DNA of 64,000 nucleotides from positions 1 to 64,000 of the IMG/VR virus record IMGVR_UViG_3300048104_000741, one strand, 5' to 3'. This DNA is from a virus. The position numbers and the translations under genes are program-made. Shown here piece after piece: positions 10,393 through 61,214 of the stretch. Position 1 is the first letter of the stretch. Each line of letters opens with the position of its first letter. Below the pieces are notes generated by a model, which did no database searches, had not been told where the DNA came from, and was given only the letters and a program-made list of their open reading frames with translations.

Positions 10393-10419
10393 TACTTATA
10401 GATCTTTGAAATTTTTGCT

Positions 10420-10848
10420 GGGGGTGTACTGGATTCGACTAATGTTGGAATTTGGCGCTGCAAGTCGGAGATGCATCTGGCTCCGATATCAAGATGCAAA
10501 AGCTATACATGGCGAAGGTTATTATAGTATTGAAGAGCTTATTGAAGCTGCTACTGAAGAGTACGAGTCTCTCGTGCAATTTGAGCAGGCTGAAGAGCTT
10601 GAGATGGTAGCTTAAAGCTGCCCCCTTACTTTCTTTGACGCAGATACTAGAATAGTAAGGACATTTATCTGCAAAAACAGAAAAGGTTTATCTGTTAATA
10701 AACTGTAGTCCGCTGAGTATTTGGAGGCAAATAATTGTAACAGAAAGTTAGATGTTAATATCGCAACTATAAAAAAAATTAACTAAACTTGTAGGTGCGT
10801 CAACCAAAGGCACTTAGGACGCGGGTTCAACTCCCGCCACCTCCACCA
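10420..10848 (+). ncRNA. ssrA: one-piece tmRNA
   Basis: tmRNA rescues stalled ribosomes and tags the product for proteolysis. The 5' end GGGGGTG pairs with 3' CACCTCC followed by encoded ACCA; the third pair is G-U, the alanine identity signal. The 3' side has a T arm (GCGGG TTCAACT CCCGC) and the 5' side has the typical GTACTGGATTCGACT. PK1 forms from CGGAG/CTCCG plus TGCATCT/AGATGCA. PK2 forms from CTTACT/AGTAAG interleaved with GCAGATA/TATCTGC, followed by a further ACAG/CTGT element. The mRNA-like part is predicted at 10511-10615. The length of 429 nt is slightly longer than usual, mostly because of the tag. Phage tmRNAs are known but uncommon. Confidence 0.95.
10511..10615 (+). other. 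tmRNA tag reading frame (about 34 residues)
   Basis: Twelve nucleotides after PK1 a GGC resume codon opens a frame that ends at TAA (10613-10615). The tag would be about 34 residues, strongly acidic, starting GEGYYSIEELIE and ending EELEMVA. Usual tags are about 8-20 residues ending in LAA or similar; the MVA end is still compatible with ClpXP/ClpAP recognition. The exact resume codon is inferred from E. coli geometry. Confidence 0.65.
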
Positions 10849-59137: not shown

Positions 59138-59250
59138 TGAATAAACATACTTATAATAATAACTTTAAATATAAAGGACAATCAATAAACATACTAGTAT
59201 GGAATAAAGATTTTAATCCCTGGAAAACAAAATTAATACTTGACAAATAA
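59137..59250 (+). CDS. small basic protein, 37 aa
   Basis: TAATG overlap with the preceding stop. Asn/Lys/Tyr-rich (KHTYNNNFKYKGQSI). Its end holds the TTGACA of the next promoter. Confidence 0.4.
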   Translation: MNKHTYNNNFKYKGQSINILVWNKDFNPWKTKLILDK

Positions 59251-59268
59251 AAAATAAATTTATATAAT
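59240..59268 (+). promoter_or_regulatory. sigma70-like promoter
   Basis: TTGACA (59240-59245), 17 nt, perfect TATAAT (59263-59268), 12 nt to ATG 59281. Confidence 0.72.
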
Positions 59269-59280
59269 ATAAAACATAAT

Positions 59281-59583
59281 ATGAAATATATAATTATAAC
59301 TTGCTTAATACTATGCGGTTGCACCTCTCACATTTCCAAAAAACTTCCACCTGTTGAAGACACTTCTAAAAAACTTCCACCTCTTGCAGATGGTTATCAT
59401 AGACTCTTTGATAAGAATAGTGATAGATATGAAGATATTAGATGCATGAGAAATCCAAAAAAAACTTATGTAACGCATCAAGGGTGCATTATGTGTTGGA
59501 TAGGTGATGATTTGACGAGTGATTCGCGCGATCCTATAATTATGGATCTTAAATCTGGATACGGAAAACGAAAAAAGAAATAA
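59281..59583 (+). CDS. small lipoprotein with SKKLPP repeat
   Basis: 100 residues. Signal KYIIITCLILCGC with lipobox, then a tandem hexapeptide SKKLPP (twice), and a Cys-containing domain (GCIMCWIGDD). Expected to be lipidated. One base overlaps the next gene. Confidence 0.65.
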   Translation: MKYIIITCLILCGCTSHISKKLPPVEDTSKKLPPLADGYHRLFDKNSDRYEDIRCMRNPKKTYVTHQGCIMCWIGDDLTSDSRDPIIMDLKSGYGKRKKK

Positions 59584-59759
59584 TGAAATACATTTTAATT
59601 ACATTAATTTTTATTTGCAGTAGTTGCGCGAACAGGCAAACTGTATTCACGAAAGAATTAGATGGTTTCGACCACTCATGTCCTACTAAAGGTCATGGAG
59701 ATTGTTTCCTCTGTGATTCAAAAGACTTTCGGATAAAAAAATACTTGACAAATAAATAA
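59583..59759 (+). CDS. small lipoprotein, 58 aa
   Basis: Signal KYILITLIFICSSC with lipobox, then a Cys/His-containing mature part (HSCPTKGHGDCFLC) that could bind metal. It is paralogue-like to the lipoprotein immediately upstream (same MKYI start). Confidence 0.6.
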   Translation: MKYILITLIFICSSCANRQTVFTKELDGFDHSCPTKGHGDCFLCDSKDFRIKKYLTNK

Positions 59760-59773
59760 TAATATACTATAAT
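59745..59773 (+). promoter_or_regulatory. sigma70-like promoter, 9-nt gap
   Basis: TTGACA (59745-59750) inside the preceding gene, 17 nt, TATAAT (59768-59773), 9 nt, ATG 59783. Confidence 0.72.
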
Positions 59774-59782
59774 ACTAAACAT

Positions 59783-60037
59783 ATGACAAATACAAAAAAA
59801 TCAACCGCAATTAACTTTGCTTATTCAAGTTTAGGCTTTTTTGCCGTTTCATTTTTCATCTGCATTGTCTCCCAAGGTATTGGGGGTTATGGAATGCTTG
59901 CTTCTTGCCTCCTTGGTCTTGTGGCATTTGTACTTGGCTTAGTAGAAAAGAATGCTAAAGCATGGGGATTAGGCTTAATAGCCCCTGTTTTGTTCTTTGC
60001 TTTGGTTGTTATAGGTTTAGCAATGGGGATAAGATAA
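59783..60037 (+). CDS. small multi-span membrane protein
   Basis: 84 residues with about three hydrophobic segments (FFAVSFFICIVSQGIGGYG; LLGLVAFVLGLV; LGLIAPVLFFALVVIGLAMG). Resembles small inner-membrane DUF-type proteins; a holin or exclusion role is possible. Confidence 0.6.
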   Translation: MTNTKKSTAINFAYSSLGFFAVSFFICIVSQGIGGYGMLASCLLGLVAFVLGLVEKNAKAWGLGLIAPVLFFALVVIGLAMGIR

Positions 60038-60049
60038 ATAAAAAATAAC

Positions 60050-60078
60050 TTGACTTTTAACAAATAATAGAGTATACT
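60050..60078 (+). promoter_or_regulatory. strong promoter of the orphan RNA
   Basis: TTGACT (60050-60055), 17 nt, TATACT (60073-60078). Start near 60085. No gene follows for 450 nt. Confidence 0.8.
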
Positions 60079-60084
60079 ATATAA

Positions 60085-60497
60085 ATCATTGAGAAAGCTA
60101 AACTCAATTAAATCAAATAAGTTTTGATCTTTAACATTTTAATTTCTCACAGGTAGCCAATTATAACAATATAGTTTGGACTGAAAAACTACCTGTGAGT
60201 AACACTTTGGAAGGGCTTATAATCCTTCCTGTGGGTGACTGAGTAAGCCTGTGATGAGCGGGCTAAAGTATGCAGATCCCTGTGGTAGGGATGGTAGAGT
60301 CCAATCGGATGAGCCAAATGACAAATACCATGTCTAGTCTGTAGTACGAAGTAGGTACACCATGAACTGATGTTCATCCCGAAAAGTCGGAGGTATACAG
60401 TAGTCCTCCCCCACATCTATTTATCTATTGTCTTGTTCTATGTTTACCCCCTTGTGATTCCTGCGATATTCGCTAACGAATCACAAGGGGGTTTTTT
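60085..60497 (+). ncRNA. orphan structured RNA, about 410 nt
   Basis: No coding frame of note. Helices: ATTGAG/CTCAAT (60088-60108); an 11-bp perfect CTCACAGGTAG/CTACCTGTGAG (60146-60156 with 60189-60199); GGAAGG/CCTTCC (60209-60229); a multibranch domain closed by GACT/AGTC (60237-60240 with 60298-60301) holding AGCC/GGCT and ATCCCT-GTGGT-AGGGAT; ATGAAC-TGAT-GTTCAT (60362-60377); GGAGG/CCTCC (60389-60409); then the terminator. It has its own promoter and a much higher GC content than its surroundings. I cannot match it to RNase P, 6S, group I introns, GOLLD or ROOL by eye. Confidence 0.75.
60447..60497 (+). terminator. strong intrinsic terminator
   Basis: Perfect 14-bp stem CCCCCTTGTGATTC/GAATCACAAGGGGG, 17-nt loop, then TTTTTT. 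Ends the orphan RNA. Confidence 0.95.
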
Positions 60498-60499
60498 GT

Positions 60500-60528
60500 T
60501 TGACAAAATAAACGAGATCCGTCATACT
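60500..60528 (+). promoter_or_regulatory. leaderless-like promoter (7-nt gap)
   Basis: TTGACA (60500-60505), 17 nt, CATACT (60523-60528), 7 nt TATAAAC, ATG 60536. Confidence 0.65.
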
Positions 60529-60535
60529 TATAAAC

Positions 60536-60883
60536 ATGATAGGAATAAATATAAACGACAAAGAACAATCTTTTACCGAGCAAATAATGGCTGGAGATAA
60601 AACAATAGAGACGAGAAATTCAAAGTCTCTTCATCCTTATATAAATAAAGTAGTAGGTATAATAAGAACAGGTAAAGGTAAAGCTACATTAGTAGGGTAT
60701 ACAAAAATAAAAGAAGCAAAAAAATATAATAATAATTTTGATAAAGATTATAATAAACATTTAGTTGCCCCCGATTCTCCTTATCATGGTCAGGATAAAT
60801 GGGGATATATTTTAGTCGATTCATTTCGATGCGAGCCAAGATTAATTACCTCTAAAGGTATAGTTTCCCGAAAATTAGTTTGA
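60536..60883 (+). CDS. ASCH-domain-like protein
   Basis: 115 residues. EQIMAGDKTIETRNSKSLHPY is typical of ASCH/PUA-like domains (GxKTIExR), followed by KVVGIIRTGKGKATLVG and WGYILVDSF. ASCH proteins bind or edit RNA or nucleosides, e.g. N4-acetylcytidine hydrolase. It is encoded just after the orphan RNA, so an RNA link is possible. Confidence 0.7.
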   Translation: MIGININDKEQSFTEQIMAGDKTIETRNSKSLHPYINKVVGIIRTGKGKATLVGYTKIKEAKKYNNNFDKDYNKHLVAPDSPYHGQDKWGYILVDSFRCEPRLITSKGIVSRKLV

Positions 60884-60908
60884 CACATTAACCATTAACC
60901 GTTATAGT
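60880..60908 (+). promoter_or_regulatory. leaderless-type promoter
   Basis: TTGACA (60880-60885) contains the TGA stop of the ASCH gene; 17 nt; TATAGT (60903-60908); 6 nt ATACTC; ATG 60915. Confidence 0.75.
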
Positions 60909-60914
60909 ATACTC

Positions 60915-61214
60915 ATGATCAATACACTATTAAAAATTATATCTAAAGAACAATTCGGCTTTGTCGATTCTAACGACCTTAAGGTGATTGAGGAGGAGAT
61001 GCCCACCCTTCCATTGCTAATGCGTTTTGGAGCCTGTCGCGAGATCTCAGAAGCGTCTCTAGTTAAGACCATTATCTCGGAGAAGGAAGCAGCCGGAGAT
61101 TATATTCGAGATGTCTCTATTCCTGCGAGAGTATTAGACGCGATGTATGAAACTCCACCCATTCGCGGGTTTGAATCTGAGGTTAAAACTGCCATTGAAA
61201 CCTTAAGGGCGTAA
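60915..61214 (+). CDS. hypothetical protein, 99 aa
   Basis: Helical alpha/beta protein of higher GC than the neighbourhood (EVVKTIISEKEAAGD-like helix, YETPPIRGFESEVKTA). Predicted leaderless. No family recognised. Confidence 0.6.
   Translation: MINTLLKIISKEQFGFVDSNDLKVIEEEMPTLPLLMRFGACREISEASLVKTIISEKEAAGDYIRDVSIPARVLDAMYETPPIRGFESEVKTAIETLRA

What the first reader, a model, noticed from the sequence alone, without database searches (positions are those of the whole stretch)
60050..60497. Orphan 410-nt structured RNA with its own promoter and terminator
A consensus promoter and a perfect 14-bp terminator frame a non-coding, GC-richer region containing at least eight helices, including an 11-bp perfect stem and a multibranch domain. 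The surroundings are AT-rich short genes. It is not a class I recognise and may be a new phage RNA; an ASCH-domain (RNA-binding type) gene follows directly.
Basis: partly seen in the sequence, partly recalled or inferred. Interest (0 to 1): 0.83.

Follow-up and report, generated by a model that had tools for sequence, protein, structure and literature searches.

The report
Stand-alone manA-type RNA in phages
The structured RNA is real but belongs to a known and still unexplained RNA family (manA); in this group of uncultured phages it is a diverged branch that has its own promoter and terminator and a ribosomal-RNA-style 'boxA' start signal, so it looks like an independent RNA gene and not the gene-control leader that manA is filed as.

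Summary
In detail: a promoter (60050-60078), a very stable non-coding fold and a strong intrinsic terminator (60446-60497) are there. It is, however, a distinct branch. IMG/VR relatives split into canonical manA (157-187 bits) and about 50 window-like loci (64-89 bits among those scored). The window-like branch ('manA-II') has 53 counted pairs at 98.6% pairing, 23 with compensatory changes, and a kissing contact that I did not see in the printed Rfam consensus. Unlike canonical manA (0 of 18 with terminator or boxA), manA-II has a terminator in 35 of 41 distinct loci, usually followed by a new promoter, and a boxA-like element in all 33 leaders examined. The same element precedes this phage's tmRNA and most tmRNAs of its relatives. 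Best reading: a stand-alone stable RNA made by host polymerase with rRNA-type antitermination signals. Its target is unknown. The ASCH link is rejected: the gene is private to the window, has its own promoter, and its ASCH label was not confirmed.

The parts
60050..60078 (+). sigma-70-type promoter TTGACT-17-TATACT
   Evidence: promoter scoring 9-12 of 12 in nearly all relatives with enough upstream DNA
60089..60107 (+). 5' hairpin TTGAG/CTCAA (boxB-like position); its loop 60094-60099 can pair with 60120-60125 (pseudoknot)
   Evidence: own-pair complementarity beats all 5000 permutations across 13 distinct leaders. In the window itself the pairing needs a G-U and an alternative nested hairpin is possible
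60126..60136 (+). boxA-like element GATCTTTAACA
   Evidence: 10 of 11 to the published gamma-proteobacterial consensus GYTCTTTAANA (PMC5725501); 9-11 of 11 in all 33 distinct leaders
60146..60199 (+). optional hairpin insert (11-bp perfect stem) between boxA and the manA core; differs or is absent in relatives
60209..60419 (+). manA RNA core (RF01745), diverged branch 'manA-II' (aligned core 60206-60415)
   Evidence: 80.8 bits, E 5.7e-19, model 1-192 of 192; covariation
60230..60235 (+). 5' strand UGUGGG of the closing helix, pairs with CCCACA 60410-60415; invariant in 33 relatives
60253..60257 (+). P2 loop GAUGA, kissing contact PK1 with UCAUC at 60374-60378
   Evidence: found in an unsupervised covariation scan; CG/GC/UA and GC/AU exchanges, 100% paired
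60284..60286 (+). loop GGU that can pair with ACC 60327-60329 (PK2)
   Evidence: read by eye: C-G in 5 sequences, U-A in most, about 3 exceptions; not formally tested
60446..60497 (+). intrinsic terminator: 15-bp stem and T6
   Evidence: a terminator in 35 of 41 distinct relatives against 5 of 41 shuffles
60500..60528 (+). separate promoter TTGACA-17-CATACT of the next gene, ATG at 60536 (apparently leaderless); lies just outside the RNA
   Evidence: same arrangement in most relatives
10401..10415 (+). second copy of the boxA-like element, 5 bases before the phage tmRNA match (10420-10848)
   Evidence: pattern GATCTTTRAMATTTT occurs only twice in 64 kb, expected 0.00 (pattern chosen after seeing both sites)

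Best explanation
The region is a stand-alone non-coding RNA gene of about 410 nt. Host RNA polymerase starts at the 60050 promoter. The nascent RNA first exposes a small hairpin or pseudoknot and a boxA element, which (inferred) loads the host NusB/S10 antitermination complex, as on rRNA leaders, so that a long untranslated RNA is finished and folded co-transcriptionally. Then comes an optional hairpin insert, then a manA-family core closed by UGUGGG/CCCACA with an internal kissing contact, and transcription stops at the intrinsic terminator. The product is most likely a stable trans-acting RNA, probably protein-bound, expressed like the phage's own tmRNA. Shown by sequence: transcription-unit layout, covarying fold, boxA conservation. 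Inferred: Nus loading, stability, trans action. Unknown: the partner.
For: Rfam membership. Bimodal scores separate a window-like branch from canonical manA. Covariation: 98.6% of cells paired, 23 pairs with two-sided changes, no shuffle as high on these measures, slid structures 39-49% paired. Terminator in 35 of 41 distinct loci against 5 of 41 shuffles; canonical manA 0 of 18. New promoter directly after the terminator, usually ATG 6-7 bases past the -10. boxA-like element in all 33 leaders; 27 score 10 or more of 11 against 0.48 in shuffles, with 0-200 bases of insert tolerated between it and the core. Independent test: 11 of 14 tmRNAs of relatives carry it 7-22 bases before the RNA, background 0.5%; also in cellular tmRNA genes (11 of 23 and 5 of 24). 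Published: boxA is bound by NusB/E and prevents Rho termination on rRNA (PMC5725501, PMC10250234).
Against: No transcript data. boxA in the window is 10 of 11, not perfect, and the leaders tested had been located by a related pattern. The next gene family is the same in many loci, which is also what a leader would show. L007 and L036 have no terminator and a gene 43-52 bases downstream. The host is unknown, so its own boxA cannot be compared.
Confidence: 0.62

Rival explanations
1. It is a cis-acting leader, as Rfam files manA: ligand or protein binding to the core decides read-through of the terminator into the next gene.
For: Rfam type is Cis-reg; manA is usually found in potential 5' UTRs (PMC2864571); canonical loci fit a leader; the downstream gene family is conserved; two relatives with a close downstream gene lack the terminator.
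Against: In most loci the next gene has its own promoter just past the terminator, so read-through is not needed. The terminator folds separately from the core. The gene behind it varies: the ASCH-like gene only in the window, cl62 in L004/L007/L036/L099.
Confidence: 0.2
2. The RNA is a decoy: boxA and the fold soak up NusB/S10 or another host factor to shift host rRNA synthesis during infection.
For: boxA is the most constant part of the leader and NusB/E binds boxA RNA (PMC5725501).
Against: A decoy would not need the intricate conserved core; the tmRNA carries the same boxA and is no decoy; one boxA per transcript is a weak sponge.
Confidence: 0.08
3. The GWTCTTT block is an initially transcribed or promoter-linked DNA element and not an RNA boxA; the RNA is stand-alone but owes nothing to Nus factors.
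For: It lies close to the -10 in several loci and in the tmRNA genes.
Against: Its distance from the -10 varies widely, with the 5' hairpin between them in most loci and absent in others, which a promoter element would not tolerate.
Confidence: 0.1

Closest known systems
manA RNA motif (Rfam RF01745; PMC2864571), in cyanophages such as P-SSM2 and S-CREM1
   Same: Same order of helices; matches the whole 192-position model above the cut-off; shares the GUGACUGA, GUGGU...ACCA and GGUAUACAGUARUCC blocks.
   Different: About half the bit score; closing helix UGUGGG/CCCACA instead of GGGAG/CUCCC; boxA leader, optional hairpin insert and own terminator; not a leader of a gene with Shine-Dalgarno start.
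rRNA operon leader (boxB-boxA-boxC, leader-trailer helix; PMC10250234)
   Same: Hairpin, then boxA, then a UGUGGG strand that pairs with the 3' end of the RNA; bacterial boxC is UCUGUGUGGG. The boxC likeness is noticed after the fact and is suggestive only.
   Different: No rRNA; distance from boxA to UGUGGG varies with the insert; Nus binding not tested.
Phage tmRNA
   Same: Same phage, same boxA-like element just before a stable RNA.
   Different: Different fold and function; no tag-coding part.

Membership tests
manA RNA (RF01745) | Score above the curated gathering cut-off over the full model | tested here: met
   80.8 against 55.2 bits, positions 1-192 of 192
manA RNA (RF01745) | Consensus helices supported by covariation in relatives | tested here: met
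   11 helices, 98.6% paired, 23 pairs with two-sided changes
manA RNA (RF01745) | Located as a potential 5' UTR of a coding gene | tested here: not met
   Terminator and a new promoter lie between it and the next gene here and in most relatives. This is Rfam's functional label; membership of the family rests on the covariance model.
manA RNA (RF01745) | Riboswitch or other ligand-sensing function | not testable with these tools
   Never shown for manA in the papers read
boxA antitermination element | Match to GYTCTTTAANA | tested here: met
   Window 10 of 11; eight distinct relatives 11 of 11
boxA antitermination element | Binding of NusB/S10 and antitermination | not testable with these tools
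   needs experiment
   singleton cluster; ASCH label itself not confirmed by Pfam or PDB

The most novel reading that the evidence does not exclude
A phage lineage has turned a leader-type RNA (manA) into an independent RNA gene by giving it an rRNA-style antitermination leader, and uses the host Nus complex to make its stable RNAs (manA-II and tmRNA), the core acting in trans on a host or phage factor.
Probability: 0.45. Interest if true: 0.72.

Novelty: new variant of a known kind. Interest (0 to 1): 0.5.

Why it matters
manA has been an unexplained RNA filed as a cis-regulator since 2010. A branch that is a separate gene, with strong covariation and a sharply conserved core, gives a cleaner object for finding its ligand or protein partner, and suggests that phages use boxA signals for RNAs other than their mRNAs. 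I found no paper in the library that joins boxA with manA or with phage tmRNA.

Tried and rejected
New RNA class: rejected by Rfam. ASCH partner: rejected. Weak Rfam hits Srn266 and STnc490 on the minus strand: below their cut-offs, over the terminator palindrome. Conserved minus-strand ORF over the core (cluster 5): a by-product of RNA conservation, since 1-2-base indels break the frame. Direct DNA similarity of the window or of the manA-II consensus to sequenced phages: none meaningful. 'Records without an Rfam hit are more distant manA': rejected; by my own estimate about a hundred chance matches to a 15-base pattern are expected in a collection this size. My first two terminator detectors missed obvious cases and were replaced. 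Canonical manA in isolates: gene contexts varied (purL, hypothetical genes, opposite strand in P-TIM68), giving no clue to a ligand. Cellular origin: two metagenome-assembled genomes hold manA-II, but on contigs of this same phage group.

Full report
What is there. The window is part of a 72,649-base virus record. Rfam places 60209-60419 in the manA family over its whole length (80.8 bits, cut-off 55.2). manA was described in 2010 from marine metagenomes and cyanophages and is filed as cis-regulatory, without a known ligand (PMC2864571; PMC9964418).

A distinct branch. Scanning IMG/VR for one conserved 15-mer and scoring the records with RF01745 gave two groups: 22 loci at 157-187 bits, and 28 at 64-89 bits that resemble the window. 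Two more patterns brought the window-like set to about 50 loci including the window, 33 with distinct full cores. Nothing similar is in the collection of sequenced phages, whereas canonical manA is in many cyanophages. In cellular genomes the branch appears only on two contigs of this same phage group, binned as Rickettsiales and Neomarinimicrobiota.

The fold. RNAalifold gives 50 pairs, 21 with compensatory changes. Counting 53 named pairs: 98.6% of cells pair, 23 pairs have changes on both sides, no shuffle of 500 is as high on these measures, and slid structures fall to 39-49%. These controls do not remove relatedness, and effective sequence number is about 15, but different pair types recur in many helices. 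A covariation scan that knew nothing of the structure ranked a non-nested contact near the top: the P2 loop with the segment after the last small hairpin (CGUGA/UCACG, GAUGA/UCAUC, UGUGA/UCACA, CGUUA/UAACG). A second loop contact, GGY with RCC, can be read; the 2010 figure marks an uncertain manA pseudoknot, but I could not see whether it is the same one.

The transcription unit. In relatives the promoter lies mostly 240-450 bases before the anchor, a terminator follows within 200 bases in 35 of 41 distinct loci (5 of 41 shuffles), and a new promoter usually begins right after its T-run, with the start codon 6-7 bases past the -10. Canonical manA differs: 0 of 18 terminators, and in most of them a Shine-Dalgarno start 36-120 bases on. 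So the branch is organised as its own gene. Six loci lack the terminator; in L007 and L036 a gene starts 43-52 bases downstream, so leader use may persist or have re-arisen there.

The leader. Between promoter and core every one of 33 distinct loci has a GWTCTTT block scoring 9-11 of 11 against the published boxA consensus GYTCTTTAANA. It stays while the sequence around it changes: the 5' hairpin can be missing, and 0-200 bases of hairpin insert can separate boxA from the core. In leaders with a G/C-containing hairpin loop, the loop is complementary to the segment before boxA, with matching changes (0 of 5000 permutations as good). For the window itself this pairing needs a G-U and competes with a nested hairpin.

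An independent check. The window's only other GATCTTTRAMATTTT is 5 bases before the phage tmRNA. That pattern was chosen after seeing both sites, so I tested relatives. In one search, 13 of 14 tmRNAs had a match of at least 10 of 11 within 40 bases upstream, against 1.3% background; two of these (L107, L108, nearly identical) sit further out, at -31. In a tight window, 11 of 14 had it against 0.5%. Cellular tmRNA genes of two phyla show it too, 11 of 23 and 5 of 24. The element is therefore a real, shared signal in front of stable RNAs, and not special to phages for tmRNA.

How it probably works. On rRNA, boxA is bound by NusB/S10 and protects untranslated transcripts from Rho (PMC5725501, PMC10250234). 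The simplest reading is that this phage uses the host complex to complete and fold a long untranslated RNA. The invariant closing strand UGUGGG resembles the end of boxC (UCUGUGUGGG), whose partner is also the 3' end of the RNA; this is a resemblance only. What the core binds is not known. The varied genes behind canonical manA argue against one obvious metabolite.

What is rejected. The ASCH link: that gene is private to the window, has its own promoter, and its ASCH label was not confirmed. The new-class claim: refuted by Rfam.

Verdict. A known family, a new variant of it in organisation and leader. Interest moderate.

Noticed in passing
window 10401-10415 and loci L104-L117: boxA-like element directly before tmRNA genes of these phages, and in many cellular tmRNA genes of the Neomarinimicrobiota and Bacteroidota phyla searched.
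   Followed up: yes
window 59240-59281, 59745-59783, 60500-60536, 60880-60915: Near-consensus sigma-70 promoters end 6-12 bases before ATG codons, so many small genes here look like single, leaderless transcripts.
   Followed up: partly
window 60146-60199; L039, L049, L056, L081, L087, L088, L090, L098: The site between boxA and the manA core accepts different hairpin inserts; L087, L088 and (with one extra base) L039 share a CTGAGTATCGG-like motif, and the window insert shares TTTGGACTGAAA with sequence downstream of the core in L061 and L095.
   Followed up: no
window 60915-61214: Conserved 99-aa protein family follows the RNA in 39 loci, with no Pfam or PHROG match.
   Followed up: partly
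   Followed up: partly
L007, L036: manA-II without terminator and with a gene 43-52 bases downstream: possible leader use within the same branch.
   Followed up: partly
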